Source of the DNA: Komagataeibacter melaceti
GTDB taxonomy: Bacteria > Pseudomonadota > Alphaproteobacteria > Acetobacterales > Acetobacteraceae
Assembly: GCF_003403295.1 (NCBI RefSeq)
Contig: NZ_QUWV01000084.1
Span: 1-51,074, forward strand
Length of the DNA: 51,074 nucleotides
Reading direction: 5' to 3'
Shown here: piece after piece, positions 15,732 to 33,674 of the stretch
How the letters are laid out: every line of letters starts with the position of its first letter
Numbering within the stretch: position 1 is the stretch's first letter
Position numbers and translations under genes: made by a program
Notes under the pieces: generated by a model
Told to the model about the DNA's origin: nothing
Seen by the model: only the letters and a program-made list of their open reading frames with translations
Database searches by the model: none

Positions 15732-15776
15732 GGATTACGGCATGGATGCGGTCATGGCAGCGCGGACGGGCAACAT

Positions 15777-17273: not shown

Positions 17274-17322
17274 ACGGGCGGGGCCTGACAGTGATGATGA
17301 CCAACCGGGGCGGACATGGCAG

Positions 17323-18841: not shown

Positions 18842-20341
18842 TTGACGGGGATCAGACACGACATCCGTTTCTATGTCGGAAACGAATGTCATACGCTGGC
18901 GGATGTGTCGCCAACGCGCACACTGCTTGACTGGCTGCGCGAGGATCGCGGCCTGACCGGTACCAAGGAAGGCTGTAACGAGGGCGACTGCGGCGCCTGC
19001 ACCGTGCTGGTGGTCCGGCTGGAGGGCGAGCGGCTGGTCTGGCGCGCGGTCAATGCCTGCATCCAGTTCGTTTCCATGCTGGATGGCGCGCAGGTCCTGA
19101 CGATCGAGGACATTCGCGCCCCCGATGGCACGCTGCACCCCGTGCAGCAGGCCATGGTTGACCAGCATGGCTCGCAATGCGGCTTCTGCACGCCGGGCTT
19201 TGTCATGTCCATGGTCGCGGGCCGCAAGGCCGATGGTCTGGCGCAGGACGAACGCCATATTGATGACATGCTGGCGGGCAACCTGTGCCGCTGCACGGGG
19301 TATGCGCCCATCGTGCGCGCCATGCGGCAGGCCATGCAGGCAGGGCCTGACCATTTCGATGCCATGGCGCAGGACATGGCCGAACGGCTGCGCGGGCTGC
19401 GCGACGGGGCCGATGTTGAGATCAGCGGGCCTGCAGGCCGCCTGACAATCCCGGCCACGGCGGATGCGCTGGCCCGCATACTGGTCGAGAACCCCGATGC
19501 CCGCATCGTGGCGGGGGCGACCGATGTGGGGCTGTGGGTCACCAAGGGGCTGCGCGTCCTGCCGCATCTCGTCCCGATTGGCCAGATCGCGGAACTGCGC
19601 CGCATCACGCGCGGGCAGGACGCCCTTTATATCGGTGCCGCCGTGACATGGCAGGAAGCACGCGCCGCGCTGGCGGAAATCCTGCCCCAGCCCGATGCGG
19701 AGGTGATCCGTCGCATCGGTTCGGTGCAGGTGCGCAACGCGGGGACGGTGTGCGGCAACATCGCCAACGGATCACCCATTGGCGACGGGCCGCCAATGCT
19801 GATCGCGGCGGGGGCCATGCTGCACCTGCGCCGTGGCGACGTGCGCCGCACCATCGCGCTGGAAGATTTCTTTGTTGATTACGGCAAGCAGGATCGCGCG
19901 CCCGGTGAGTTCGTGGAGGGTGTCAGCATCCCGCTGCCCGACCCGCAGACCGTGATCCGCGCATGGAAAATCTCCAAGCGGTTCGATCAGGACATTTCCG
20001 CCGTTCTGGGGGCATTCTCGCTTACCCTTGCGCCCGATGGCACCATTACCCGCGCGCGGGTGGCCTTTGGCGGCATGGCGGCCACGCCGCGCCGCGCATC
20101 GCGCACCGAAGCCGCGCTGGAAGGCCATAAATGGGATGAAACCACGCTGGAGGCCGCCCGCCAGGCAATAATGGAGGATTTTGCCCCCATTACCGACATG
20201 CGGGCGAGTGACTGGTACCGTCGTACCGTCGCCGCCAATCTGCTGACCCGGCTTTACGCCGATTGCGGGCCGGAGGGTGCGCGCGCGCCGATCAGCGTCA
20301 ATTCCGCCTGCACAGCCGCCGGAGAACATGCCCATGGCTGA
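18842..20341 (+). CDS. xdhA: Xanthine dehydrogenase small subunit (2Fe-2S and FAD domains)
   Basis: A 499-residue iron-sulphur flavoprotein subunit. The first plant-type 2Fe-2S cluster is bound by Cys45, Cys50, Cys53 (GCNEGDCGAC) and Cys73; the second by Cys113, Cys116, Cys149 and Cys151 (CGFCTPG and CRC). The C-terminal half, from about residue 200, is the FAD domain of molybdopterin dehydrogenases (VAGATDVGLW, NAGTVCGNIANGSPIGD). It passes electrons from the molybdenum subunit to NAD+. The start is a TTG preceded by AGGGAACAGA. The next gene, xdhB, overlaps its 3' end by 8 bases. Confidence 0.93.
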   Translation: MTGIRHDIRFYVGNECHTLADVSPTRTLLDWLREDRGLTGTKEGCNEGDCGACTVLVVRLEGERLVWRAVNACIQFVSMLDGAQVLTIEDIRAPDGTLHPVQQAMVDQHGSQCGFCTPGFVMSMVAGRKADGLAQDERHIDDMLAGNLCRCTGYAPIVRAMRQAMQAGPDHFDAMAQDMAERLRGLRDGADVEISGPAGRLTIPATADALARILVENPDARIVAGATDVGLWVTKGLRVLPHLVPIGQIAELRRITRGQDALYIGAAVTWQEARAALAEILPQPDAEVIRRIGSVQVRNAGTVCGNIANGSPIGDGPPMLIAAGAMLHLRRGDVRRTIALEDFFVDYGKQDRAPGEFVEGVSIPLPDPQTVIRAWKISKRFDQDISAVLGAFSLTLAPDGTITRARVAFGGMAATPRRASRTEAALEGHKWDETTLEAARQAIMEDFAPITDMRASDWYRRTVAANLLTRLYADCGPEGARAPISVNSACTAAGEHAHG

Positions 20342-22700
20342 TGGAAACACTTTCCCCGCCGCCGCCCCTACGGCGGAAAACGGTATCGTCGCGGGCGGGG
20401 CCACGCGCAGCCTGCGCCATGAAAGTGCGGCCATGCATGTGCAGGGCAGCGCCAGCTATATCGACGACCTGCCCGAGCCGCGCGGCACCCTGCACCTGGT
20501 GCCGGGGCTGAGCGCGCGCGCCCATGCCCGCGTCCTGTCCATGGATCTGGATGCCGTGCGGGAGGCGGAGGGCGTGGTTGGCGTCTATACGGCCGCCGAC
20601 ATTCCCGGCGAAAACCAGATCAGCCCGGTGGGCAAGGGTGATGAGCCGCTGCTGGCGTCGGATCTGGTCTCCTTTTACGGCCAGCCGCTGTTTGTTGTCG
20701 CCGCCACCACGCGGGGTGCTGCACGGCGCGCCGCGCGTCTGGCGCGGGTGGAGTATGAGGACCTGCCCGCCATCCTGAACGTGGCGCAGTCGCGTGAGGC
20801 GGGCAGCCCCATGGTATGGCGCCCGATGGAAATGAAGCGCGGCGATGCCGTGGGCGCGCTGGAACATGCCCCGCGCCGGCTTTCGGGCCGGATTACGGTG
20901 GGCGGGCAGGAGCATTTCTACCTCGAGGGACAGGTCGCCTTCGCCCGGCCGGGGGAGGAGGGGGAGGTTCATGTCATTTCCTCCACCCAGCACCCGACCG
21001 AAACCCAGCACATGATTGCCCATGTGCTTGACCGCCCGGCCAACCTTGTCACGACCGAGATACGGCGCATGGGCGGCGGCTTTGGCGGCAAGGAAACGCA
21101 GGCCAATACCTGCGCCTGCCTTGCGGCACTGGTGGCCGACCTGACCGGGCGGCCCGCCAAGATGCGCCTTGACCGCGATGACGACATGACCATGACCGGC
21201 AAGCGGCATGACTTCGTGATTGATTACGATGTCGGCTATACCGATGAAGGCCGGATTGTCGCGGTGGACATGGTGCTGGCCGCGCGCTGCGGCTGGTCGG
21301 CCGACCTGTCCGGGCCGGTGATCGACCGCGCCCTGTTCCATGCCGATAACGCCTATTTCTATCCTGACGTGCGCCTGCGCTCCGAACCGCTGCGCACCAA
21401 CACGCAGTCCAATACCGCCTATCGCGGCTTTGGTGGCCCGCAGGGCGTTGTCGCGGCCGAGCGCGTGATCGAGGAAATCGCGTTTGCCACCGGCCTTGAC
21501 CCGCTGGAAGTACGCCTGCGCAACGTGTACGGCACGCATGACCGTAACGTCACACCCTACAACATGGTGGTCGAGGATTCGATCAGCGCCGAGCTGGTGC
21601 CCCAGTTGGCCCGGCGCTGCGATTACGCCCGTCGGCGCGAAGCCGCCCGTGCGTTCAACGCCACCAGCCCGTACCTGCGCCGGGGCATTGCGCTGACCCC
21701 GGTCAAATTCGGCATCTCCTTTACCGCCACCCACTTCAATCAGGCTGGCGCGCTGGTTCATGTCTATACCGATGGCTCGGTGCAGGTGAACCATGGCGGC
21801 ACCGAAATGGGGCAGGGCCTGCATACCAAGATGGTGCAGGTGGCCATGCGCGAATTCGGGCTGGGCAGCGACCAGGTGCGCATTACCGCCACCACGACCG
21901 GCAAGGTGCCCAATACTTCGGCTACCGCTGCTTCCTCCGGGGCGGACCTGAACGGCATGGCCGTGCAGGACGCGGTGCGCCGCATCAAGCGCAGGCTGGT
22001 CGCCTTTGCCGCTGCCCACTGGAACGTGGCGGAAGACGCGGTGCGATTCCTACCTGACGGGGTACATCTGGGGGAGAAGGTCATTCCCTTCTCGCACCTG
22101 ACACGGCAGGCCTATTTCGCGCGCGTGTCCCTGTCGGCCAACGGGTTCTACAAGACCCCGAAAATCTCGTGGAACGGGGAGACCGGGCAGGGACGTCCCT
22201 TTTACTACTTCGCCTATGGTGCGGCCTGTTCGGAGGTGGTGATCGACCTGCTGACGGGTGAGACAAAGATTGAGCGTGTCGATATCCTGCATGACGCGGG
22301 CGAGTCGCTTAACCCGGCGCTGGACATCGGCCAGGTGGAAGGGGGCTTCGTGCAGGGGGCTGGCTGGCTGACCTGTGAGGAACTGGTGTGGGACAAGGCG
22401 GGCCGCCTGCGCACGCACGCGCCCAGCACCTATAAAATCCCCGCCTGTTCGGACCGGCCCCGCATCTTCAACGTGGAACTGTTGCAGAACGCGCCGAACC
22501 GGGAACAGACCATCTTCCGGTCCAAGGCCGTGGGGGAGCCGCCCTTCGTGCACGGGGTGTCGGTCTTCATGGCCATATCGGATGCGCTGGCCAGTCTGGA
22601 TGACTACCGCACATGCCCACGGCTCGATGCGCCCGCAACACCGGAGATGATCCTGCGCACGGTGGCGCGCATGCGCCACGGCGACGTAACCGCCGCCTGA
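20334..22700 (+). CDS. xdhB: Xanthine dehydrogenase molybdopterin-binding large subunit
   Basis: A 788-residue molybdenum cofactor subunit that hydroxylates hypoxanthine and xanthine to urate. Cofactor-binding motifs are RRMGGGFGGKETQ near residue 245 and GGTEMGQGLHTK near 490. TAYRGFGGPQG carries the substrate-binding Arg of xanthine dehydrogenases, and the catalytic Glu is Glu735 in VGEPPF. The ATG at 20334 has a GGAGA nine bases upstream and overlaps the end of xdhA; an ATG at 20328 is too close to that site. Retention of the purine-specific Arg supports a true xanthine dehydrogenase rather than an aldehyde oxidase. Confidence 0.93.
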   Translation: MADGNTFPAAAPTAENGIVAGGATRSLRHESAAMHVQGSASYIDDLPEPRGTLHLVPGLSARAHARVLSMDLDAVREAEGVVGVYTAADIPGENQISPVGKGDEPLLASDLVSFYGQPLFVVAATTRGAARRAARLARVEYEDLPAILNVAQSREAGSPMVWRPMEMKRGDAVGALEHAPRRLSGRITVGGQEHFYLEGQVAFARPGEEGEVHVISSTQHPTETQHMIAHVLDRPANLVTTEIRRMGGGFGGKETQANTCACLAALVADLTGRPAKMRLDRDDDMTMTGKRHDFVIDYDVGYTDEGRIVAVDMVLAARCGWSADLSGPVIDRALFHADNAYFYPDVRLRSEPLRTNTQSNTAYRGFGGPQGVVAAERVIEEIAFATGLDPLEVRLRNVYGTHDRNVTPYNMVVEDSISAELVPQLARRCDYARRREAARAFNATSPYLRRGIALTPVKFGISFTATHFNQAGALVHVYTDGSVQVNHGGTEMGQGLHTKMVQVAMREFGLGSDQVRITATTTGKVPNTSATAASSGADLNGMAVQDAVRRIKRRLVAFAAAHWNVAEDAVRFLPDGVHLGEKVIPFSHLTRQAYFARVSLSANGFYKTPKISWNGETGQGRPFYYFAYGAACSEVVIDLLTGETKIERVDILHDAGESLNPALDIGQVEGGFVQGAGWLTCEELVWDKAGRLRTHAPSTYKIPACSDRPRIFNVELLQNAPNREQTIFRSKAVGEPPFVHGVSVFMAISDALASLDDYRTCPRLDAPATPEMILRTVARMRHGDVTAA

Positions 22701-22704
22701 AACC

Positions 22705-23562
22705 ATGAGCATGACAATGCGCGCGGACCTGGAGCGATGGCGGCATGAAGGCCAGCTCATCGCCCGGATCAGCGTGTCCGCCGCGCGCGGCTCCACCCCG
22801 CGGGAGGCGGGCACGTTCATGCTGGTCACGCCCACGGCCCTGACCGGCACGATTGGCGGGGGGGAACTGGAATGGAACGGCATCCACCGCGCCCGTGAAC
22901 TGCTGGCCGGTGGCGGGCAGGCGGTTGACCTGCGCATAAGTCTGGGCGGCAATTCCGGGCAGTGCTGCGGTGGTGAGATCATGCTGACGCTGGACCTGCC
23001 CGACGCGGCGGAACTGGACCGGATCATGGCCGGGCTGGAACGTCAGCGCATGGAGGAACCGCTGCTGCTGCTGTTTGGTGCGGGGCATGTGGGCCGTGCG
23101 CTGGCCCATGTGCTCGCGCCCCTGCCGCTGCGGCTGGCATGGTGCGATTCGCGGCCGGAGGAATTCGGCCCCGTCATTCCCCCCGGCGTCATGGTGCATG
23201 ATGACGGGAACTGGGAAAGGCTGGTGGCCAGCGCCCCGGCGGGATCGGGCGCGCTGGTCCTGACCCAGAGCCATGCACTTGACAGCCTGATTGTTGCGTC
23301 CATCCTCGAACGCGGTGACTTTGGTTATGTCGGGCTGATCGGCTCACGGACCAAGCGCCGCCGGTTCGAGGCGGGCTTCCGCCAGATCGGCCTGCCGGAG
23401 GAACGTATCGCCACCATGACCTGCCCGATAGGGGACAGGGGGGTCCGTGACAAGCGCCCCCCCGTGATCGCGGCCCTGGTGGCGGCGGAAATCGTCACGC
23501 ATTTCCTGCACCATGCGCAGGCTGATGGTGATGCAGATGAGGTGACAGGACCTGATGAGTGA
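22705..23562 (+). CDS. xdhC: Xanthine dehydrogenase maturation factor XdhC
   Basis: A 285-residue protein of the XdhC/CoxI family, which binds molybdenum cofactor, promotes its sulphuration and inserts it into XdhB. The N-terminal domain has ARGSTPREAGTFMLV and GTIGGGELEW, with the CCGG stretch (GQCCGGEIMLTLD) near residue 95. The C-terminal Rossmann-type domain has FGAGHVGRALAHVL near 125 and GLIGSRTKRRRFE. It starts 4 bases after xdhB and overlaps the lysR-type gene, so xdhABC and the regulator form one transcription unit. Confidence 0.92.
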   Translation: MSMTMRADLERWRHEGQLIARISVSAARGSTPREAGTFMLVTPTALTGTIGGGELEWNGIHRARELLAGGGQAVDLRISLGGNSGQCCGGEIMLTLDLPDAAELDRIMAGLERQRMEEPLLLLFGAGHVGRALAHVLAPLPLRLAWCDSRPEEFGPVIPPGVMVHDDGNWERLVASAPAGSGALVLTQSHALDSLIVASILERGDFGYVGLIGSRTKRRRFEAGFRQIGLPEERIATMTCPIGDRGVRDKRPPVIAALVAAEIVTHFLHHAQADGDADEVTGPDE

Positions 23563-24514
23563 TCCGCTGGCCCGCACGCCACGCATGATGCGCCTGCATG
23601 CGCGTGGCATTTCCTATTTCAATGCCGTGCGGGAATGTCGTTCCATCCGCGAGGCGGCGCGGCGGCTCAATGTCACGCCTTCGGCCCTGACGCGCCAGCT
23701 TGCGCAGATGGAGGCCGAAATCGGCGCGCCACTGTTCGACCGCCTGCCCGATGGCATGGTCCTGACGGAGGTGGGCAACATCATGGCCCGCCATATCGTG
23801 ACCGTCATGCAGGACGCCGCGCGGACGGAGGAACAGATCAACGCACTCTCCGGCCGGCATGACGGGCGGCTGCGCATCATGGCGGTGGAAGGGATCGCGG
23901 GCCAGCTCCTGCCCGCGCTGCTGGGGCGGATCATCGCGGCCTTCCCCTCGGTTGAACTGCATGTGGAAGTGGGGGCGCCCAAGACCATCGTTTCAGCCTT
24001 GCAGGACGGGCGGGTCGATCTGGGCATCGCGTTCTCGCTGGCCCTCCACCCCGAACTGCGGCGGGTGGCGGTGGCGCATTTTCCCGTGGGGGCGGTGGTA
24101 CGCACCGATCACCCGCTGGCGGGGCTGCGCACCGTCACGATAGAGGAATGTATCGCCTACCGGCTGATCCTGCCCACGCGCACCCTGTCACTGTACCGGG
24201 TGATGGAACCCATGCTGCGCCCGTGGCAGGACCAGCTTAACGTGGTGCTGCATACCGGGTCGATCGAACTGACCAACCGCATGGTGCAGGCCGGGGTGGG
24301 GCTGGCGTTCCAGTCCCCGCTGGCCATAGGCGTGCAGCCGGGGCAGGAGGAACTGCTGCGGCACGTGCCGCTGCGCGATACCCGCGCGGTGACCGATCTG
24401 GGCGCCTATGTGCGTGAATCCCGCTGGCTGCCGCCATTGCTGGAGACGGTGATCGAGGAACTGCGCCTTGAACTGCGCCGGATACAGGGCGTGGGCGACG
24501 AGCGTGTTGTCTGA
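23555..24514 (+). CDS. LysR-family transcriptional regulator
   Basis: A 319-residue LysR-type regulator. The winged helix-turn-helix is at about residues 19-75 (SIREAARRLNVTPSALTRQLAQ and the GAPLFDRLPDG turn), followed by a periplasmic-binding-protein-like effector domain. It is translationally coupled to xdhC by an 8-base overlap and lies directly before the allantoin/oxalurate gene cluster, so it probably controls purine catabolism. Its ligand is unknown; urate or an early intermediate is an inference. A T-N11-A motif with TGAT/ATCA arms lies downstream at 24579-24597. Confidence 0.88.
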   Translation: MSDPLARTPRMMRLHARGISYFNAVRECRSIREAARRLNVTPSALTRQLAQMEAEIGAPLFDRLPDGMVLTEVGNIMARHIVTVMQDAARTEEQINALSGRHDGRLRIMAVEGIAGQLLPALLGRIIAAFPSVELHVEVGAPKTIVSALQDGRVDLGIAFSLALHPELRRVAVAHFPVGAVVRTDHPLAGLRTVTIEECIAYRLILPTRTLSLYRVMEPMLRPWQDQLNVVLHTGSIELTNRMVQAGVGLAFQSPLAIGVQPGQEELLRHVPLRDTRAVTDLGAYVRESRWLPPLLETVIEELRLELRRIQGVGDERVV

Positions 24515-24685: not shown

Positions 24686-26134
24686 ATGGACACCACTACG
24701 CAGGCAACTGCCGGCGGGCTCGCAGCACTGGATGCGGCAGTGCGCCGTGACCTGGACATTATCCGTTATCCCCGCAAGGAATGGACGCCGCAGCTTGAGC
24801 ACAAGGGCCAGCGCGTTCTGGACGTCGCCATTATCGGCGCGGGACAGGGCGGGCTTGCCACCGCATTCGCGCTCAAGCGCACCAATATAACGAACGTGCG
24901 TATTTTCGACCGCGCCGCCAAGGGGGGCGAGGGGCCGTGGATCACGTTCTCACGCATGATCACCCTGCGCACGCCCAAATACGTGACCGGCCCGGACCTG
25001 GGCGTGCCCTCCCTTACGCCGCGCTCATGGTACGAAGCCCGTTATGGCGCCGAAGCATGGGAAAAGCTGGACAAGATCCCGCGCGAGGAATGGCAGGACT
25101 ACCTTGACTGGTACCGCGACATCCTCGACCTGCCGGTCGCCAACGACCACGAATTTACCGGTGTGACGTGGGAAGACGGCCTGCTGCGCCTGAGCTTCCG
25201 CCGCCCCGATGGCTCGACCCATGTGCATTATGCCCGCAAGCTGGTGCTGGCCACCGGCATCGAAGGCTGCGGCACATGGTACGTGCCGGAGTTCATCCGC
25301 GATAGCCTGCCGCGTGATCGCTATGCCCACACCTCGGAAAACATTGATTTCGCGGCGCTGAAGGGCAAGCGGATCGGTGTTCTGGGGGCTGGTGCCTCGG
25401 CGTTCGATAACGCGGCCACGGCGCTGGAAGCCGGTGCGGGCAGTGTCACGTTGTGCCTGCGCCGTAAGGAAATTCCGTCCATCAACCCGTATCGCTGGAT
25501 GGAAAACACCGGGTTCCTGGCCTACTACCCGGCCCTGTCGGATGACCTGCGCTGGGGCTTCATGCGCCGGATTTTCGAGCTGAACCAGCCGCCGCCGCAG
25601 GACACGTTCTGGCGCTGCCGCCGGCATGAGACCTTCTCCTTCCGCACCGGCTGCCCGTGGACGGGCACGCGGATGGATGGCGATGAGATCGTGGTTGATT
25701 CGCCCGATGGTGAAATGCGCTTTGACTTCGTCATCATCGGCACGGGTTTTGCGACCGACCTGTCGCTGCGTCCGGAAACGGCGTCCTTCGCCCCGTCCGT
25801 CGCCCTGTGGGGCGAGCGTTACACACCCCCGGCGGAGTGTGACAGCGCGGTGCTGAAGACCTATCCGTACCTGGGTGATTCCTACCAGTTCCTGCCGCGC
25901 CGTGCGGATGACCCGCTGGCGCCGATGCTGGCGAACATCCACAACTTCACGTTCTCGGCCACGCCGAGCATGGGCCTCTCCGGGGCGTCCATCAGCGGCA
26001 TGCGCTTTGGCGTGGAACGTCTGGCGCGCGGCCTTGGCCGTGACCTGTACGTGGCCGATGGCAAGCAGCACCTTGAAAGTCTGCTGTCCTATGACGTGCC
26101 GGAACTGGTCAGTCTCGATCCGCCTGTTGCATGA
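24686..26134 (+). CDS. FMO-like flavoprotein monooxygenase, candidate urate hydroxylase
   Basis: A 482-residue protein with two Rossmann motifs: FAD-binding IIGAGQGGLA (residues 49-58) and NAD(P)H-binding VLGAGASAFDNAA (from 232), plus a late IIGTGFATD. The segment GEGPWITFSRMITLRTPKYV (81-100) is characteristic of a family of FAD/NAD(P)-binding oxidoreductases of uncertain substrate. It heads the operon containing hydroxyisourate hydrolase and OHCU decarboxylase, which need 5-hydroxyisourate. No Uox, PuuD or HpxO-type protein is present in the window, so this is the likely urate-oxidising step. A flavoprotein urate hydroxylase unrelated to HpxO, named HpyO, has been described in Xanthomonas; whether this is its orthologue cannot be decided by eye. 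Confidence 0.75.
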   Translation: MDTTTQATAGGLAALDAAVRRDLDIIRYPRKEWTPQLEHKGQRVLDVAIIGAGQGGLATAFALKRTNITNVRIFDRAAKGGEGPWITFSRMITLRTPKYVTGPDLGVPSLTPRSWYEARYGAEAWEKLDKIPREEWQDYLDWYRDILDLPVANDHEFTGVTWEDGLLRLSFRRPDGSTHVHYARKLVLATGIEGCGTWYVPEFIRDSLPRDRYAHTSENIDFAALKGKRIGVLGAGASAFDNAATALEAGAGSVTLCLRRKEIPSINPYRWMENTGFLAYYPALSDDLRWGFMRRIFELNQPPPQDTFWRCRRHETFSFRTGCPWTGTRMDGDEIVVDSPDGEMRFDFVIIGTGFATDLSLRPETASFAPSVALWGERYTPPAECDSAVLKTYPYLGDSYQFLPRRADDPLAPMLANIHNFTFSATPSMGLSGASISGMRFGVERLARGLGRDLYVADGKQHLESLLSYDVPELVSLDPPVA

Positions 26135-26175: not shown

Positions 26176-26412
26176 ATGAGCAGCGCAGAACGCGTATCTC
26201 CTTCCACGCCGGGTAATTCCGGCGTGGCGGGGGACGATGACCACAAGGTTCCCCCAGTAGCCGAGATGGCGCGGCTGATCGGCCTGTCCATCCCGGCGGC
26301 CTGCATGCCCGATGTGCTAAAAAACACGGCGCTGCTGCAGGGTTATGCCGACCTGCTGGGCGGGTTTGCGCTGCCCGATGACTGTGAACCAGCCTATGAG
26401 TACGAACCATGA
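26176..26412 (+). CDS. DUF4089 / AtzG-like small subunit of an amidase (HpxX-like)
   Basis: A 78-residue protein. The C-terminal 45 residues (MARLIGLSIPAACMPDVLKN onward to LLGGFALPDD) match the small helical subunits that pair with AtzE-type amidases: AtzG in cyanuric acid catabolism and HpxX in purine catabolism. It has a GGGAGGAAA-type ribosome binding site upstream and overlaps the following amidase gene by 4 bases, which fits a two-protein complex made in equal amounts. The N-terminal 30 residues are low complexity and not conserved. Confidence 0.8.
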   Translation: MSSAERVSPSTPGNSGVAGDDDHKVPPVAEMARLIGLSIPAACMPDVLKNTALLQGYADLLGGFALPDDCEPAYEYEP

Positions 26413-27788
26413 CCGAACCCCGGAGCCCTCTGGCCGGGGCGCTGGCCCTGGCGGCCGAGATACGTGCGGGCCGCCGGAGCGCGGTATCGGTCGTGACCGG
26501 TGCGATCGCGGATATCGAGGTCCGTGATACGCGCTTCAACAGCGTAACCCGCATTCTGGGCGCCGCCGCCGTGGCCCAGGCGGAGGAAGTGGACCGCGCC
26601 ATCGCGGCAGGCCGGGACCCCGGCCCGCTGGCGGGCGTGCCCTTTGGCGTGAAAGACCTGTTCGACGTGCAGGGCGAGGTCACCACGGCAGGCTCGCTGG
26701 TGCTGCGTGACAACCCGCCCGCCGCACGGGACGCAACGGTTGTGGCCCGGCTGCGCGCGGCGGGCGCCGTGCCGCTCGCCACGCTGAACATGGACGAGTT
26801 CGCCTATGGCTTCTCGACCGAAAACACCCATAACGGCACCACCCGCAACCCGCATGATCCCGAACGGCTGGCCGGTGGCTCATCCGGCGGGTCGGCGGCT
26901 TCCGTTGCGGCGGGGATGCTGCCGTTTACGCTGGGGTCGGACACCAATGGCTCCATCCGCGTGCCGTCCTCGCTCTGCGGTGTATGGGGGCTGAAGCCAA
27001 CCTACGGGCAGATGCCGCTGCAGGGTGTCTATCCGTTCGTGGCGAGCCTTGACGTGGTTGGCCCCATGGCCAGCACGGTCGAGGACCTGCAGGCGGTGTA
27101 CGGCATCATGGCCGATGCGCCGCTTGTGTCGCTGCCTGTGGTGGAAGATGTGCGCGTGGCCCGTCTTGGCGGGTGGTTCGCCAGCAATATCAGCACGGAA
27201 CTGACTGCGGCCCTTGATGCGGTCATGACCCATCTGGGCCATGACAGGGTGATCGAACTGCCGGAAGTGGCGCGTGCGCGGGCCTCGGCCTTCCTGATCA
27301 GCGCGGCAGAGGGCGGCAACCTGCACCTGCCGCGCCTGCGGCGGCGCGCCATGCAGTACGATCCCGCAACGCGCGGCCGCCTGATGGCGGGGGCCATGCT
27401 GCCCGCCGCCACCTTCGTGCAGGCACACAGGTTCCGCCGCTGGTTCCGCGCGCAGGTCCATGCCGCGCTGGCGCAGGCGGACGTGCTGGTGGCGCCGACC
27501 ACGGTGGGCATCGCGCCGCGCATTGACCAGCCTTCCATCATCGTGGACGGCAAGACCGTTTCGGCCCGGGCCAACCTGGGCATCTTCACCCAGCCGATCA
27601 GCCTGACGGGGCTGCCGGTTCTGGCCGCGCCGCTGGCGGTGGAGGGGATGCCGCTGGGCATCCAGCTTATCGGCGCGCCGGGCAGCGAGGCCCGCCTGTT
27701 TGCCGTAGCCCGTGAACTCGAGAGCGCGGGCCTTGCACGCTGCACGCCACTGGCTGCAGGATTTGCCGCGAAGGACAGCCCATGCTGA
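26409..27788 (+). CDS. AtzE-family amidase (HpxY-like), probable oxalurate hydrolase subunit
   Basis: A 459-residue amidase-signature enzyme. The Ser-cisSer-Lys triad is complete: Lys82 (FGVKDLFDV), Ser158 (GGSSGGS) and nucleophile Ser182 (GSDTNGSIR), with spacing like that in other family members. With the DUF4089 partner encoded just upstream, it resembles 1-carboxybiuret hydrolase AtzEG and the HpxXY pair. In the ureidoglycine-oxalurate-oxamate pathway described for Klebsiella, the neighbours fit cleavage of oxalurate to oxamate. That substrate assignment is inference. It overlaps the next gene by 7 bases. Confidence 0.82.
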   Translation: MTEPRSPLAGALALAAEIRAGRRSAVSVVTGAIADIEVRDTRFNSVTRILGAAAVAQAEEVDRAIAAGRDPGPLAGVPFGVKDLFDVQGEVTTAGSLVLRDNPPAARDATVVARLRAAGAVPLATLNMDEFAYGFSTENTHNGTTRNPHDPERLAGGSSGGSAASVAAGMLPFTLGSDTNGSIRVPSSLCGVWGLKPTYGQMPLQGVYPFVASLDVVGPMASTVEDLQAVYGIMADAPLVSLPVVEDVRVARLGGWFASNISTELTAALDAVMTHLGHDRVIELPEVARARASAFLISAAEGGNLHLPRLRRRAMQYDPATRGRLMAGAMLPAATFVQAHRFRRWFRAQVHAALAQADVLVAPTTVGIAPRIDQPSIIVDGKTVSARANLGIFTQPISLTGLPVLAAPLAVEGMPLGIQLIGAPGSEARLFAVARELESAGLARCTPLAAGFAAKDSPC

Positions 27789-29374
27789 ATACGCCGCGCT
27801 CATGCAGGGGGATGGTCACATCCCCCCACCATCTGGCCAGCCAGGCCGGTCTGGACGTGCTCAAGGCAGGCGGGACCGCGCTGGAGGCCGCCGTGGCCAC
27901 GGCGGCGGCGCTGGCGGTTGTCTATCCGCACATGACAGGGATCGGCGGGGATGCGTTCTGGCTGACCATGTGGCCTGACGGGCGTGTCGAAACCATAGAT
28001 GCCTGCGGGGCCGCCGCGGCAAAGGCTGATGCCGGGTTCTATCGCGCCGCCGGTCTGGACGCCATTCCGTGGCGTGGCCCGCTTGCGGCCAACACGGTGG
28101 CGGGTACTGTGTCGGGCTGGGACATGGCGCTGTCATGGAGCCATGCGCTGGCCCCCGGCCTGCCGCTGGGCCGCGTGCTGCGTGATGCGCTGTACTATGC
28201 CGAACAGGGCGTGCCCGTAACCGCCAGCGCGGCTGAAATCACCCGTGAAAAGGCGGATGAACTCAGCGATGTGCCCGGTTTCCGTGACCAGTTCATGCCC
28301 GGCGGCCGCCTGCCGCGCGCGGGTGACATCCTGCATAACCCCCGGCTGGCCAACACGCTGCGGCAACTGGCGGATGAGGGGCTGTCCAGCTTCTACCACG
28401 GCGCGGTGGCGCGTGAACTCGCCGCCGACCTGCATGACCTTGGCAGCCCGCTCACGCTGGCGGACCTTCAGGCCCACAAGGCCACGCACCAGCCCGCGCT
28501 GCATGCCCGTATTCACGGGGCCGACCTGTACAACATGGCCCCGCCCACCCAAGGCGTGGCGTCGCTGCTGATTCTGGCGCTGTTCGACCGGCTGAAGGCC
28601 GACCATGCGGATGATTTCGATTACCTGCACGGCCTGGTCGAGGCGACCAAGCAGGCTTTCCGCTACCGTGATACCCATGTGGGCGATCCCGCCTACATGA
28701 CCGTGCAGGCGCAGGACATTCTGGATGACGCCAAGGCGCTCGACCGCATGGCCAGCGCCATCGACCCCCGCAAGGCCGCGCCGTGGCCGTGGCCATCACA
28801 GGCGGGGGATACGGTCTGGCTTGGCGTGGTTGATTCCGACGGGCTGGCCGTCAGCATGATCCAGAGCCTGTATTTTGAATACGGTTCCGGCATCGTCCTG
28901 CCGCGCACCGGTGTCGTGTGGCAGAACCGGGGCACCAGCTTCGGCCTTGACCCGCAGGGCTGGAATGGCCTGCGTCCGGGCCGCAAGCCGTTCCATACGC
29001 TCAACCCCGCAGGCGCCCGCTTTGCCGATGGGCGGACCATGGTCTATGGCACCATGGGTGGCGAGGGCCAGCCACAGACGCAGGCCGCCATTTTCAGCCG
29101 CTATGCCCGTTACGGCGTGCCGTTGCAGCAGGCCGTCACCGCGCCGCGCTGGCTGCTGGGCCGCACATGGGGCGAGACAAGCGTGAGCCTGAAATATGAA
29201 GACCGTTTTGACCCTGCCGTCATAGAGCGCATGCGCGCGGCGGGGCACCAGATGGAACGTGTGGAACCGTTCTCCTCCAAGATGGGGCATGCGGGGGCAT
29301 TGGTGCGTCATGAATCCGGCCTGCTGGAAGGGGCGAGCGACCCGCGCAGCGATGGATGCGTGGCCGCATGGTAA
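27782..29374 (+). CDS. hpxW: Gamma-glutamyltransferase-fold Ntn hydrolase, probable oxamate amidohydrolase
   Basis: A 530-residue Ntn hydrolase related to gamma-glutamyltranspeptidase. The predicted autoprocessing site is before Thr344 in AGDTVWLGVVDSDG, which would give chains of about 343 and 187 residues with Thr344 as nucleophile. HpxW of Klebsiella, a member of this family, hydrolyses oxamate to oxalate and ammonia, and the gene context (allantoate amidohydrolase, ureidoglycine aminotransferase, HpxXY-like pair) is the same. No signal peptide is seen, unlike periplasmic glutathione-degrading enzymes, which supports a cytoplasmic catabolic role. Confidence 0.82.
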   Translation: MLNTPRSCRGMVTSPHHLASQAGLDVLKAGGTALEAAVATAAALAVVYPHMTGIGGDAFWLTMWPDGRVETIDACGAAAAKADAGFYRAAGLDAIPWRGPLAANTVAGTVSGWDMALSWSHALAPGLPLGRVLRDALYYAEQGVPVTASAAEITREKADELSDVPGFRDQFMPGGRLPRAGDILHNPRLANTLRQLADEGLSSFYHGAVARELAADLHDLGSPLTLADLQAHKATHQPALHARIHGADLYNMAPPTQGVASLLILALFDRLKADHADDFDYLHGLVEATKQAFRYRDTHVGDPAYMTVQAQDILDDAKALDRMASAIDPRKAAPWPWPSQAGDTVWLGVVDSDGLAVSMIQSLYFEYGSGIVLPRTGVVWQNRGTSFGLDPQGWNGLRPGRKPFHTLNPAGARFADGRTMVYGTMGGEGQPQTQAAIFSRYARYGVPLQQAVTAPRWLLGRTWGETSVSLKYEDRFDPAVIERMRAAGHQMERVEPFSSKMGHAGALVRHESGLLEGASDPRSDGCVAAW

Positions 29375-29388
29375 GGGAGGAAGGCTAT

Positions 29389-30639
29389 ATGGACCGGCCA
29401 TCGGGCCACCGCGCGGTGGCACGTTGCGCCCTGCTGGGGGCAGCACCGTATTCCGAGATGGAAGGCGGGCTGTTCCGCCCCTATCTGGGTTCCTCCTACC
29501 GCGCGACATGCGACCTGCTGGCCACGTGGATGGTCGAAGCGGGCATGAACACGCGCATGGATGCGGCGGGGAACCTGATCGGCCGTTACGAGGGGCTGAC
29601 CCCCGATGCCCCGGTGCTGCTGATCGGATCGCATATCGACAGCGTGCGCGATGGCGGTTTTTTTGACGGCATGCTGGGTGTCATCCTCGGGATCGAGGCG
29701 GTGGCCCATTTCGCGCAGGCGGGAAAGCGCTTTCCCTTCGCGCTGGAAGTCATCGGCTTCGGGGATGAGGAAGGCTCGCGCTTCCCCTCGGGCATGCTGA
29801 CATCGCATGCCGTGGCAGGCGTGCTGGAAGCACCTGACCCGGATATGGCCGACTGGGCGGAAACCGCCACGCTGGCTACCGCATTGCAGGAATTCGGGCT
29901 GGATGCCGGGCGGATGCACATGGCGTCGCGCAAGGGCGATCCAGTTCTGGCCTATGTCGAGGCCCATATCGAACAGGGGCCGGTGCTGGAATCGGAAGGC
30001 CGTGCCCTGGGCGTGGTCAGCGCCATTGCCGCGCAGCACCGCTACCGTGTGACGTACCGCGGCATGGCGGGCCATGCCGGAACCGTGGCGATGCCCCTGC
30101 GGCGTGACGCGCTGGCCGGTGCGGCCGAGGTCATCCTCGCCGCCGAACGCATTGCCCGCGCGGGCACGGACGGACTTGTGGCCACGGTGGGCTCGCTGCA
30201 TGTTACGCCGGGTGCGGCGAATGTCGTACCGGGCGAGGTGGTGTTCACCGTTGATGTCCGTGCCGGAACCAACGCCGTGCGCGACCGTGCGGCGCATGAC
30301 ATCCTTGCCGCGATCCGGCAGGTCGCGGCAGCGCGTGAGCTGGAAGTTGACATCTCCCTGCAGCAGGATCTCGACGCCACGCCGTGCGATCCCGTGCTGA
30401 CCGAACTCATGGAACAGGCCGTGAGTGATGTCAGCGGCGCGCCCGCGCGGCTGCTGGTCAGCGGGGCGGGGCATGACGCCATGATCATGGCGCATCTGGC
30501 CCCGGTTTCCATGCTGTTCATACGCTGCGCGGGGGGGATCAGCCATAACCCCGCCGAATCCGTAACGGATGCGGATACAGAGCAGGCCCTGCGGGCCATG
30601 ACGACCTTCATCGGACTTTTTGAAAGACGTTTCGGATGA
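29389..30639 (+). CDS. allC: Allantoate amidohydrolase (M20 family)
   Basis: A 416-residue metal-dependent hydrolase of the M20/amidase-hydantoinase-carbamoylase group, converting allantoate to ureidoglycine, CO2 and ammonia. Two-metal site residues are visible: His82 in GSHIDSV, Asp93 in GGFFDGMLG, Glu127/Glu128 in GFGDEEGSRF, the later EAHIEQGPVLE, and a C-terminal His in GGISHNPAE. The ATG at 29389 has a strong GGGAGG site ten bases upstream; an earlier in-frame ATG (29356) lacks one and overlaps the previous gene. A ureidoglycolate or N-carbamoyl amino acid substrate is the main alternative, made less likely by the neighbours. Confidence 0.87.
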   Translation: MDRPSGHRAVARCALLGAAPYSEMEGGLFRPYLGSSYRATCDLLATWMVEAGMNTRMDAAGNLIGRYEGLTPDAPVLLIGSHIDSVRDGGFFDGMLGVILGIEAVAHFAQAGKRFPFALEVIGFGDEEGSRFPSGMLTSHAVAGVLEAPDPDMADWAETATLATALQEFGLDAGRMHMASRKGDPVLAYVEAHIEQGPVLESEGRALGVVSAIAAQHRYRVTYRGMAGHAGTVAMPLRRDALAGAAEVILAAERIARAGTDGLVATVGSLHVTPGAANVVPGEVVFTVDVRAGTNAVRDRAAHDILAAIRQVAAARELEVDISLQQDLDATPCDPVLTELMEQAVSDVSGAPARLLVSGAGHDAMIMAHLAPVSMLFIRCAGGISHNPAESVTDADTEQALRAMTTFIGLFERRFG

Positions 30640-31865
30640 CCCAGACATTTTTTGGCCAGATCAACCCTCCCGCCCGGCTGCTGATGGGGCCCGGGCCGGT
30701 CAACGCGCACCCGCGCGTGCTGCGGGCCATGGCGGCCGACATGCTTGGGCAGTTTGACCCGGAAATGACCACCTACATGAACCAGACGATGGAACTCTAC
30801 CGTCAGGTGTTCATGACCGATAACCGCTGGACCTTTCTGGTGGACGGCACGGCGCGCGCCGGGATCGAGGCTGCACTCGTCTCGCTGGTCGAGCCGGGGA
30901 TGAAGCTGCTGATCGTGCGTGCGGGCCGTTTCGGGCTGCTGCTGTCCGAAATCGCAACGCGGATCGGTGCGGATATCGCGACGGTGGACATCCCGTGGGG
31001 CGAGGTCGCGACACTGGAGCAGATCGAGGAGGCGATCGTGACCCATCGCCCCCGCGTGCTGGCCTGCATCCATGGTGATACCTCCACCACCATGGCGCAG
31101 CCGCTCGATGGCGTGGGCGCGCTGTGTCGCAAATACGATGTGCTGTCCTATGTCGATGCGACGGCCACACTGGGTGGCATGGCGGTTGCAACAGACCGCT
31201 GGGGCGTGGACGTGGTCAGCGGTGGCCTGCAGAAGTGCATGGGCGGCCCGCCGGGCTCCGCGCCCATCACCATTTCCGACCGTGCGGCCGAGCACATCAT
31301 GGCGCGCCGCCATGTCGAGGCCGGTATTCGTGGCAGCGACACGACCGATGGCGTGCGGGCGCGCATTCCGTCCAACTATTTCGATCTGGCCATGATCATG
31401 GATTACTGGTCCGAAAAGCGCCTCAACCACCATACCGAGGCCACCAGCATGCTCTACGCCGCGCGTGAGGCTGCGCGCGTGATGGTGGAAGAGGGGCTGG
31501 AAGCCCGCTTCGCCCGCCATGCCAGCGCATCCCGCGCCATGTGCGCCGGGCTGCGCGCCATGGGGCTGGAACTGTTTGGCAGTGATGAACACCGCATGAC
31601 CAACGTGACCGGCGTGTACATTCCCGAAAGTGTTGATGGCGAGCGCGTGCGTAACCGCATGCGTGAGGATTTCGAAATCGAGATCGGCAGCGCATTCGGC
31701 CCGCTGCAGGGCAAGATCTGGCGCATTGGCGCGATGGGCTACAATGCCGAGAAGCACAAGGTCCTGCTCACGCTCGGGGCGCTGGAAGCTGTGCTGCGGC
31801 ATGAGGGGCATAGCTTTGCCGCCGGCAGCGGCGTGGACGCCGCCCTTGCCGCCTATAACGCATAA
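30636..31865 (+). CDS. pucG: (S)-ureidoglycine aminotransferase (PucG/HpxJ-like)
   Basis: A 409-residue class V PLP aminotransferase of the alanine-glyoxylate aminotransferase family. The N-terminus PPARLLMGPGPVNAHPRVL is typical, and the PLP lysine is Lys200 in SGGLQKCMGGPPG. PucG of Bacillus and HpxJ of Klebsiella transfer the amino group from unstable ureidoglycine to a keto acid, giving oxalurate. The 4-base overlap with the allantoate amidohydrolase gene that supplies ureidoglycine supports this substrate. The amino acceptor cannot be told from the sequence. Confidence 0.85.
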   Translation: MTQTFFGQINPPARLLMGPGPVNAHPRVLRAMAADMLGQFDPEMTTYMNQTMELYRQVFMTDNRWTFLVDGTARAGIEAALVSLVEPGMKLLIVRAGRFGLLLSEIATRIGADIATVDIPWGEVATLEQIEEAIVTHRPRVLACIHGDTSTTMAQPLDGVGALCRKYDVLSYVDATATLGGMAVATDRWGVDVVSGGLQKCMGGPPGSAPITISDRAAEHIMARRHVEAGIRGSDTTDGVRARIPSNYFDLAMIMDYWSEKRLNHHTEATSMLYAAREAARVMVEEGLEARFARHASASRAMCAGLRAMGLELFGSDEHRMTNVTGVYIPESVDGERVRNRMREDFEIEIGSAFGPLQGKIWRIGAMGYNAEKHKVLLTLGALEAVLRHEGHSFAAGSGVDAALAAYNA

Positions 31866-31885: not shown

Positions 31886-32797
31886 ATGTCTGATGCAGGT
31901 GTCTATCCGCGCGATCTTGTAGGCTATGCGGGCAACCCGCCGGATGCGAAATGGCCCGGCGGCGCGCGGATTGCCGTGCAGTTCGTCATCAATTACGAGG
32001 AGGGGGCCGAGAATTCGGTTCTGCATGGGGATCGCGGGTCGGAAGCCTTCCTGTCGGAAATGATCGGCGCGCAGTCCATTCCCGGTGCGCGCGCGATTGC
32101 GATGGAAAGCCTGTATGAATACGGCTCACGCGCCGGGTTCTGGCGCCTGCACCGTATCTTTACCGCGCGTTCGCAGCCGCTTACGGTTTTCGGGGTGGCC
32201 GCCGCCATGGCGCGCAACCCGGCGGCTGTCGCGGCGATGAAGGAAGCCGGATGGGAGATCGCCTCCCACGGGCTGCGCTGGATTGATTATCAGCATGTGC
32301 CTGAAGCGGTGGAGCGCGCCCATATTCAGGAATGTATCGCGCTGCATACGGAACTGACCGGATCGCGCCCGCTTGGCTGGTACCAGGGGCGCACCAGCCC
32401 CAACACCGCCCGGCTGATCGCGGAGGAAGGCGGCTTTGTCTATGACGCCGATTCCTATGCCGATGACCTGCCCTATTACGACCGCAGCAATGGCCGCGCG
32501 CAACTGATCGTGCCGTACACGCTGGACGTGAACGACATGCGCTTTGTCGCCCTGAACGGCTTTACCGAAGGGGAGCAGTTCTTCAACTACCTGCGCGATA
32601 CCTTCGACACATTGTATGAGGAAGGGGCGGAAAAGCCGCGCATGATGTCGGTTGGCCTGCACTGCCGCGTGGCGGGCCGTCCGGGCCGTGCGCGGGCGGT
32701 GGCGCGTTTCCTTGACTATATTGCCGGGCGTGAAAAGGTCTGGGTTGCGACAAGGCTGGATATCGCGCGCCACTGGCTGGAGGTGCATCCGGCATGA
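31886..32797 (+). CDS. puuE: Allantoinase PuuE (polysaccharide deacetylase fold)
   Basis: A 303-residue protein of the metal-independent PuuE allantoinase family, unrelated to the dihydropyrimidinase-like allantoinases. The N-terminal YPRDLVGYAGNPPDAKWPGG and VINYEEGAENS, and later GWYQGRTSPNTARL, are strongly characteristic. It opens the allantoin ring to allantoate. The start follows the GGGAGATCA sequence. The gene overlaps uraD by 4 bases, so the two successive steps OHCU to allantoin to allantoate are translationally coupled. Confidence 0.93.
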   Translation: MSDAGVYPRDLVGYAGNPPDAKWPGGARIAVQFVINYEEGAENSVLHGDRGSEAFLSEMIGAQSIPGARAIAMESLYEYGSRAGFWRLHRIFTARSQPLTVFGVAAAMARNPAAVAAMKEAGWEIASHGLRWIDYQHVPEAVERAHIQECIALHTELTGSRPLGWYQGRTSPNTARLIAEEGGFVYDADSYADDLPYYDRSNGRAQLIVPYTLDVNDMRFVALNGFTEGEQFFNYLRDTFDTLYEEGAEKPRMMSVGLHCRVAGRPGRARAVARFLDYIAGREKVWVATRLDIARHWLEVHPA

Positions 32798-33321
32798 GTG
32801 ATGTGATCGGGCGCGTCAACACGCTCTCCCCCGTGCGGTTTGTCGAACTGTTTGGCTCACTGTACGAGCACTCCCCATGGGTGGCGCAGCGCGCGCATGC
32901 CCATGGCCCCTTTGCCGATGAGCAGGCCATGCTCGCGGCCATGCGCCATGAGCTTGAGCAGGCGGAGGACGCGGAGAAGCTGGCGCTGATCCGTGCCCAC
33001 CCGGAACTTGCTCAGCGCATGGGGGTGGACCCGACACTGACATCGGCTTCTGCCGCCGAGCAGGCCTCTGCCGGGCTGGACCGGCTTACCCCGGATGAGT
33101 TCGCCCGCTTCCGCGCCCTGAATGATGCCTATGCCGCCAAATTCGGCATTCCGTTCATCATCTGCGTGCGGCGTTCCGACAAGGACGGCATCCTGAACGG
33201 GATGCGGACCCGGCTGGAAAACACGCCCGAGGCAGAGCAGCAGGCCGCCCTGGCTGAAATCAACAAGATCGCGGCACTCCGCCTGATGGATGTGCTCGAG
33301 CGGATGGAGCAAGAGCCATGA
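32794..33321 (+). CDS. uraD: OHCU decarboxylase
   Basis: A 175-residue enzyme converting 2-oxo-4-hydroxy-4-carboxy-5-ureidoimidazoline to S-allantoin. The catalytic His69 is in LIRAHPELAQ, followed by SAAEQASAGLDRL and YAAKFGIPFIICVR, all signatures of the family; the length is standard. It overlaps puuE upstream and uraH downstream by 4 bases each. Confidence 0.94.
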   Translation: MSDVIGRVNTLSPVRFVELFGSLYEHSPWVAQRAHAHGPFADEQAMLAAMRHELEQAEDAEKLALIRAHPELAQRMGVDPTLTSASAAEQASAGLDRLTPDEFARFRALNDAYAAKFGIPFIICVRRSDKDGILNGMRTRLENTPEAEQQAALAEINKIAALRLMDVLERMEQEP

Positions 33322-33674
33322 GTACCCTGTCCACCCATGTCCTTGACCTCGTATCGGGCAAGCCTGCGGTAGGCATGGCCATAAGCCTGTGGCAGGGGCA
33401 GGAGAGCCTGTTCCGTGGCGTAACCAACGTCGATGGCCGCTGCCCGGAACTCAGCCAGCATATGGGGGAGATGCAGCCGGGGGCCTACCGGCTGGAATTC
33501 GCGGTGGCGGACTATTTCCGTGCGCGTGACGTGGCCCTGTCCGACCCGCCGTTTCTGGACATCGTGCCGATCGCCTTCGGCGTGGCGCAGGCCGGTGCGG
33601 ACGGGAAGGGGGGGCATTACCATGTGCCGCTTCTGGTCTCGCCCTACGGGTTTTCCACCTATCGGGGAAGCTGA
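33318..33674 (+). CDS. uraH: 5-hydroxyisourate hydrolase (transthyretin-like)
   Basis: A 118-residue transthyretin-fold enzyme that hydrolyses 5-hydroxyisourate to OHCU. It starts with the family motif STHVLDLVSGKPA (His7) and ends with the diagnostic C-terminal YRGS, with HYHVPLLVSPYGFSTY just before it. It is the last gene of the purine operon and is followed 20 bases on by a strong terminator. Its presence implies that 5-hydroxyisourate is made by an enzyme in the cell, most likely the flavoprotein encoded at the head of the operon. Confidence 0.95.
   Translation: MSTLSTHVLDLVSGKPAVGMAISLWQGQESLFRGVTNVDGRCPELSQHMGEMQPGAYRLEFAVADYFRARDVALSDPPFLDIVPIAFGVAQAGADGKGGHYHVPLLVSPYGFSTYRGS

What the first reader, a model, noticed from the sequence alone, without database searches (positions are those of the whole stretch)
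24686..26134. Non-classical urate-oxidising flavoprotein heading a complete urate-to-oxalate operon
Seen: xdhABC, uraH, uraD, puuE, allantoate amidohydrolase, a PucG-like transaminase, an AtzG/AtzE-like pair and an HpxW-like Ntn hydrolase lie on one strand, covering every step but urate to 5-hydroxyisourate. Known: bacteria use Uox, PuuD, HpxO or HpyO for that step; none of the first three is present. Inference: the FMO-like 482-residue flavoprotein at the head of the operon fills the gap, either as an HpyO relative or as a further independent type.
Basis: partly seen in the sequence, partly recalled or inferred. Interest (0 to 1): 0.72.

Follow-up and report, generated by a model that had tools for sequence, protein, structure and literature searches.

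The report
Flavoprotein filling the missing urate-oxidation step
A flavin enzyme in a vinegar-bacterium genome sits next to the rest of the uric-acid breakdown genes, while three known uric-acid-oxidising enzymes were not found in that genome, so it is very probably the enzyme that starts uric-acid breakdown there; it is not the well-known flavin type, and whether it is the lesser-known one could not be settled.

Summary
A 482-aa FMO-like flavoprotein (24686-26134) heads an operon with AtzG/AtzE, a GGT-fold hydrolase, allantoate amidohydrolase, a class-V transaminase, PuuE, UraD and UraH, downstream of xdhABC and lysR. The window's draft genome shows no Uox, PuuD or HpxO. In a 398-genome phylum draw 141 carry UraD: 117 have PuuD, 8 others Uox, 13 others HpxO; the 3 left are this genome, a family member with the same flavoprotein, and one unexplained genome. 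UraD/UraH lie in 68 of 80 Acetobacteraceae loci around the gene; 10 of 12 misses are contig-truncated. Gluconobacter loci keep only flavoprotein-PuuE-UraD-UraH. Most other relatives read are not urate-linked. Two motifs mark the urate-linked clade. The predicted fold is that of class B monooxygenases and related reductases. Best reading: NAD(P)H- and FAD-dependent urate 5-hydroxylase. Unresolved: orthology with Xanthomonas HpyO, whose sequence I could not obtain. No activity is shown.

The parts
24686..26134 (+). FMO-like flavoprotein P0001, proposed urate 5-hydroxylase (482 aa)
24830..24868 (+). first dinucleotide-binding (FAD) motif IIGAGQGGLATAF, residues 49-61
   Evidence: GAGQGG at residue 51; sequence
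25385..25402 (+). second (NAD(P)H, inferred) dinucleotide motif GAGASA, residues 234-239
25484..25504 (+). clade signature NPYRWME, residues 267-273
25583..25594 (+). clade signature NQPP, residues 300-303
18842..20341 (+). xanthine dehydrogenase FeS/FAD subunit (ORF; true start not determined)
20277..22700 (+). xanthine dehydrogenase molybdopterin subunit (TIGR02965); true start probably downstream of the ORF start
22705..23562 (+). XdhC maturation factor (TIGR02964)
23555..24514 (+). LysR-type regulator
26176..26412 (+). AtzG-like small subunit (PF13318)
26409..27788 (+). AtzE-family amidohydrolase (NF006631)
27782..29374 (+). gamma-glutamyltranspeptidase-fold Ntn hydrolase, HpxW-like by context
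29356..30639 (+). allantoate amidohydrolase (NF006775)
30636..31865 (+). class-V aminotransferase, ureidoglycine transaminase by context
31886..32797 (+). allantoinase PuuE (TIGR03212)
32794..33321 (+). OHCU decarboxylase UraD (TIGR03164, PF09349)
33318..33674 (+). 5-hydroxyisourate hydrolase UraH (PF00576)

Best explanation
The 24686-26134 product is the urate-oxidising enzyme of this organism: a soluble, FAD- and NAD(P)H-dependent class B-type flavoprotein monooxygenase that hydroxylates C5 of urate to 5-hydroxyisourate, which UraH and UraD then turn into S-allantoin and the remaining operon enzymes carry towards oxalate. Proposed chemistry (inferred): NAD(P)H bound at the second Rossmann domain reduces FAD, O2 gives a C4a-hydroperoxyflavin, and its distal oxygen is transferred to the electron-rich C5 of the urate anion, with water as by-product. 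It takes the place of HpxO in an otherwise Klebsiella Hpx-like gene set (that comparison recalled, in part seen in L145). Shown here: sequence, motifs, predicted fold, operon, absence of three other urate oxidases from the draft genome, conserved association. Inferred: substrate, cofactor use, mechanism. Not decided: orthology with Xanthomonas HpyO.
For: No Uox, PuuD or HpxO found in G000. Of 141 UraD-bearing genomes in a 398-genome phylum draw, 117 have a strong PuuD match, E<1e-90; of the other 24, 8 have Uox and 13 HpxO over its cut-off; the 3 left are G000 and G513, both of one family and both with this flavoprotein (100% and 64% identity), and G508. UraD/UraH present in 68 of 80 Acetobacteraceae loci; 18 of 18 Gluconobacter loci show flavoprotein, PuuE, UraD, UraH and a LysR gene, and no other of the window's pathway proteins in the held stretch. 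The flavoprotein lies within 1.4 kb of UraD and/or UraH in Niveispirillum (L015), G035 (L026, UraH only), Sphingobium V4 (L024), Novosphingobium PP1Y (L161/L163), G721 (L133), Priestia p5 (L018) and G513 (L142, UraH only). All 22 urate-linked rows fall in one 30-row branch of a 52-row tree, 98/94 support; NPxRxME plus NQPP is in 22 of 22 of them and in 3 of 30 others, two of which are Acetobacteraceae. The predicted fold matches N-hydroxylating and FMO-type monooxygenases.
Against: No assay. The wider family is large and mostly not urate-linked: in the class draw, 11 of 13 further copies read had no UraD/UraH in the stretch; of 11 flavoprotein loci that I opened among 345 plasmid records, 7 had none; of 15 UraD-bearing genomes with a family member besides G000 and G513, 11 were read and none had UraD/UraH beside it. 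L095 and L100 (Acetobacter) carry the gene with 10 kb on both sides and no UraD/UraH there. In G513 UraD is on another contig. The fold is shared with reductases: the highest Z, 25.7, is to bacillithiol disulfide reductase. Class B enzymes usually oxidise N, S or ketones (recalled), so a ring C-hydroxylation would be unusual. FMO and BVMO fingerprints (patterns recalled) are absent, 0 of 118 sequences. The signature was picked from the same sequences it is counted on.
Confidence: 0.86

Rival explanations
1. Same function, but not a new type (this overlaps with the best explanation): the protein is an orthologue of HpyO, the FAD-dependent urate hydroxylase described from Xanthomonas campestris, simply unannotated in acetic acid bacteria.
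For: HpyO is a FAD and NAD(P)H urate hydroxylase not homologous to HpxO (PMC4562309). That paper left 12 of 1689 species unexplained, most put down to errors of gene identification, which would fit acetic acid bacteria having been counted as hpyO (inference). P0001 passes the Pfam cut-off of PF13454 (29.9 against 21.8 bits), the domain that I recall InterPro naming after HpyO/CreE.
Against: P0001 matches PF13434 (50 bits) and PF13738 (46 bits) better than PF13454. No Xanthomonas record is among the rows listed for 345 plasmid records (40 and 60, overlapping) or among the 80 best of 512 genome relatives, but these lists are cut and prove nothing.
Confidence: 0.45
2. The flavoprotein hydroxylates a substituted urate (for example methylurates from caffeine or theobromine) rather than urate itself, feeding the same UraH/UraD steps or analogues.
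For: A class A flavoprotein of the HpxO type, TmuM, does this in caffeine degradation (recalled). The gene lies on plasmids in several hosts.
Against: The window's genome would then have UraH, UraD and PuuE without a found enzyme making their substrate from urate; xdhABC lie beside the gene in the window and in many Komagataeibacter, Gluconacetobacter and Acetobacter loci.
Confidence: 0.06
3. The flavoprotein has another role in purine use (redox partner, xanthine or 8-oxoguanine oxidation), and an unrecognised gene elsewhere oxidises urate.
For: Related proteins sit beside xdh-like genes (L016) and beside an 8-oxoguanine deaminase (L020). One UraD-bearing genome (G508) shows none of PuuD, Uox, HpxO over cut-off or this protein, so further oxidases may exist.
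Against: The conserved partners in distant lineages are UraH and UraD; no xdh gene was found in the held stretches of Priestia L018, Niveispirillum L015 or the 18 Gluconobacter loci; among the window's pathway genes it is the only redox enzyme in those sets.
Confidence: 0.06

Closest known systems
HpyO, FAD-dependent urate hydroxylase of Xanthomonas campestris (Michiel et al. 2012, known here only through PMC4562309 and recall; the paper itself was not seen)
   Same: Proposed reaction, FAD and NAD(P)H use, not homologous to HpxO
   Different: Sequence relation could not be tested here
HpxO, FAD urate hydroxylase of Klebsiella/Acinetobacter (NF033623)
   Same: Proposed reaction; similar downstream gene set in G539 (L145), whose HpxO is on another contig
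   Different: No NF033623 match in G000 at E<=1e-10; two Rossmann motifs and a class B-like predicted fold instead of the PHBH-type class A fold (recalled for HpxO)
PuuD, membrane cytochrome c urate oxidase (PF06181)
   Same: Position in pathway
   [quoted passage not shown] P0001 matches neither domain; no PF06181 match in G000 or G513
Uox, cofactor-free urate oxidase (PF01014)
   Same: Position in pathway
   Different: No PF01014 match in G000 or G513
Class B N-hydroxylating and FMO-type monooxygenases (PvdA, KtzI, DfoA, Stenotrophomonas maltophilia FMO; SidA less closely)
   Different: 15-19% identity; FMO and BVMO fingerprints absent; different proposed substrate; reductases such as YpdA fit the model as well

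Membership tests
HpxO (NF033623) | Match above curated cut-off of 500 bits | tested here: not met
   G000 has 0 matches at E<=1e-10, while 13 of 24 genomes in the same search pass the cut-off; P0001 has no HpxO match in NCBIfam
HpxO (NF033623) | PHBH-type class A fold (recalled) | tested here: inconclusive
   Listed structural matches are class B monooxygenase and reductase folds; absence from those lists is not proof
HpyO | Sequence orthology with X. campestris HpyO | not testable with these tools
HpyO | PF13454 domain (its link to HpyO recalled from InterPro) | tested here: inconclusive
   29.9 bits over a 21.8-bit cut-off, residues 48-145, but weaker than PF13434 and PF13738
Uox | Uricase domain PF01014 | tested here: not met
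PuuD | Urate_ox_N PF06181 plus cytochrome c | tested here: not met
Class B flavoprotein monooxygenase | Two Rossmann dinucleotide motifs | tested here: met
   GAGQGG at 51 and GAGASA at 234
Class B flavoprotein monooxygenase | Overall fold (shared with some reductases, so not exclusive) | tested here: met
Class B flavoprotein monooxygenase | FMO or BVMO fingerprint (patterns recalled) | tested here: not met
   0 of 118 sequences
Urate hydroxylase (function) | Conversion of urate to 5-hydroxyisourate with NAD(P)H and O2 | not testable with these tools
   Needs an assay; genomic context only

The most novel reading that the evidence does not exclude
A fifth, independently evolved family of urate oxidases: a class B-type flavin monooxygenase, recognisable by NPxRxME and NQPP, that performs a ring C-hydroxylation, is the usual urate oxidase of many acetic acid bacteria, and has travelled to sphingomonad plasmids and to a plasmid of the Gram-positive Priestia.
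Probability: 0.42. Interest if true: 0.65.

Novelty: new variant of a known kind. Interest (0 to 1): 0.52.

Why it matters
Doniselli et al. 2015 held that finding PuuD completes the repertoire of Uox, HpxO, HpyO and PuuD, with 12 of 1689 species left unexplained (PMC4562309). This names a concrete gene for the acetic acid bacteria; absence of Uox, PuuD and HpxO was tested genome-wide in two of them (G000 and G513). It comes with a sequence signature and a compact operon in Gluconobacter, so the assignment can be tested directly. A soluble urate hydroxylase that makes water instead of hydrogen peroxide would also be of practical interest for urate-lowering enzymes and probiotics (inference).

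Tried and rejected
PF16181 was a wrong accession for PuuD (another family); redone with PF06181. I tried to reach Xanthomonas HpyO by residual analysis: a class draw around G539 (369 genomes, 30 with UraD, 32 places), neighbourhoods of 24 of those 32 places (seven of the other eight were in genomes already covered by the phylum draw, one partial match was not read), the order of G721 (only 2 genomes), UraD-bearing plasmids (60 of 236 records listed, five opened) and literature. None gave an identifiable HpyO. Paper searches on acetic acid bacteria and urate: one search returned none; two searches returned 128 and 738 papers, of which I saw 15 listed each, none on this enzyme by title or abstract start. 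This covers only the open-licence library. The order-wide search (299 genomes) scored only two candidates per genome, so I use it only to note that the best match is the flavoprotein in some genera and PuuD in others, not as a co-occurrence count. A promoter and terminator scan upstream of the gene was at chance level. Solved structures by sequence: only distant flavoproteins. One search used a query file that held four proteins, so its L133 and L163 rows were PuuE; corrected. No class A match appears in the listed rows, which does not exclude one.

Full report
OBSERVATION. The ORF at 24686-26134 (+) encodes 482 residues. Pfam and NCBIfam place it only at the level of two-dinucleotide-binding flavoproteins; no NCBIfam model reaches its cut-off. 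Around it lie xdh subunits, xdhC and lysR upstream, and AtzG, AtzE, a GGT-fold hydrolase, allantoate amidohydrolase, a class-V transaminase, PuuE, UraD and UraH downstream, all on +. The closest named relatives of the flavoprotein are in Komagataeibacter, 87-91% identical.

OTHER URATE OXIDASES. The genome behind the window (G000, 3.49 Mb, 248 contigs) shows no uricase, no PuuD and no HpxO match at E<=1e-10. P0001 is the only match to itself there. The genome is a draft, so a gene in a gap is possible.

RESIDUAL ANALYSIS. In a phylum draw of 398 genomes, 141 have UraD. 118 have a strong PuuD match (E<1e-90; one, in G421, is cut by a contig end), 117 of them among the UraD-bearing ones. The weak partial PF06181 matches of other genomes (166 genomes in all at E<=1e-10) were not counted as PuuD. 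I searched the remaining 24 for Uox (8 positive) and HpxO (13 over cut-off). The last three are G000 and G513, which are one family and both carry this flavoprotein, and G508, which stays unexplained. For P0001 I searched 80 of the 141 (the 24 plus 56 with PuuD): 17 of 80 have a family member at E<=1e-10. Apart from G000 and G513, I read one copy's neighbourhood in 11 of those 15 genomes (not G217, G549, G542, G458; second copies in four genomes were not read; the G283 stretch covers one side only): none has UraD or UraH in the stretch. In the earlier class draw 12 of 190 genomes had a match at E<=1e-20; of the 13 copies outside G000, all read, two (L025, L026) have UraD and/or UraH and 11 do not. 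Of 11 flavoprotein loci opened among 345 plasmid records, chosen by rank and interest, four have them and seven do not. So the family is broad and only part of it is tied to urate.

CONSERVED CONTEXT. A scan of named genomes returned the best 80 of 512 relatives, all Acetobacteraceae by their titles. UraD or UraH lies in the held DNA in 68 of 80; of the 12 misses, 10 are cut by a contig end and two (L095, L100) are not. Komagataeibacter and Gluconacetobacter keep the window's order as far as the contigs reach; many Acetobacter loci split it; 18 of 18 Gluconobacter loci keep flavoprotein-PuuE-UraD-UraH beside a LysR gene, with none of the other window enzymes found in the held stretch. Outside the family, the gene lies next to UraD and/or UraH in Niveispirillum cyanobacteriorum (L015; G175 is evidently the same record, by its length), G035 (UraH), Sphingobium sp. 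V4, Novosphingobium sp. PP1Y, G721 and Priestia filamentosa plasmid p5. In L015, L024, L026, L133 and L161/L163 the nearest tblastn matches of flavoprotein and UraD or UraH overlap or are under 40 bases apart. In the Priestia plasmid the set is permease-uraD-uraH-flavoprotein.

TREE AND SIGNATURE. In a 52-row tree all 22 urate-linked sequences fall in a 30-row branch (98/94); the label needs 6 changes against a shuffled mean of 17.0, 0 of 500 shuffles as low, though near-copies help such clustering. The other rows inside it are L100 and L117 (Acetobacteraceae), L020, L016, L017, L030, L034 and L153. Motifs NPxRxME and NQPP are both present in 22 of 22 urate-linked rows and 80 of 80 Acetobacteraceae rows (sets overlap), and in 3 of 30 other rows: L100, L117 and L020. 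L020 lies beside a PuuE-like gene and an 8-oxoguanine deaminase. The motifs were chosen on these same sequences, so this is a description, not an independent test.

HPYO. PMC4562309 (parts 1-3 of 6 and passages) says HpyO is a FAD and NAD(P)H urate hydroxylase from Xanthomonas, not homologous to HpxO, and that 12 of 1689 species with UraH and UraD remained unexplained, most by errors of gene identification. Its supplement was not available to me and the HpyO paper was not seen. Passages of PMC10117892, PMC12507026, PMC5270733 and PMC5138847 and the abstract of PMC4016543 gave no sequence or family for HpyO. I cannot say whether acetic acid bacteria were counted as hpyO carriers in 2015. I give orthology about 0.45.

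VERDICT. Function as urate hydroxylase: 0.86. Not HpxO by profile, not Uox, not PuuD: tested. Either an unannotated branch of HpyO or a fifth family. The gene is common in acetic acid bacteria, and I saw no statement of its role in the listings and passages of the papers searched.

Noticed in passing
L141 (G508:C2:140001-160000): UraH, PuuE and UraD are present, but this genome shows no PuuD, Uox, HpxO over cut-off or P0001 relative at E<=1e-10: its urate oxidase is unknown.
   Followed up: partly
L018 7722-11404 (Priestia filamentosa plasmid p5): A compact permease-uraD-uraH-flavoprotein set on a 98-kb Gram-positive plasmid, with a recombinase and a Tn3 transposase a few kb away; looks like a mobile urate module.
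   Followed up: partly
L020 (Rhizobium sp. ACO-34A plasmid): Flavoprotein with the clade signature beside PuuE-like, amidase-like and 8-oxoguanine deaminase genes but no UraD/UraH found: possibly a related purine pathway.
   Followed up: partly
   Followed up: no
L159 (Roseateles sp. XES5 plasmid): A uraD gene embedded among ABC transporter genes, with no uraH annotated in the 18-kb stretch.
   Followed up: no
window 13473-18693: Polyphosphate kinase, Ppx/GppA phosphatase and an amidohydrolase (possibly guanine deaminase) directly upstream of the xdh genes.
   Followed up: no
phylum draw, family code f166: Many small genomes carry short partial PF06181 matches, perhaps the short DUF989 variants that PMC4562309 mentions.
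   Followed up: no
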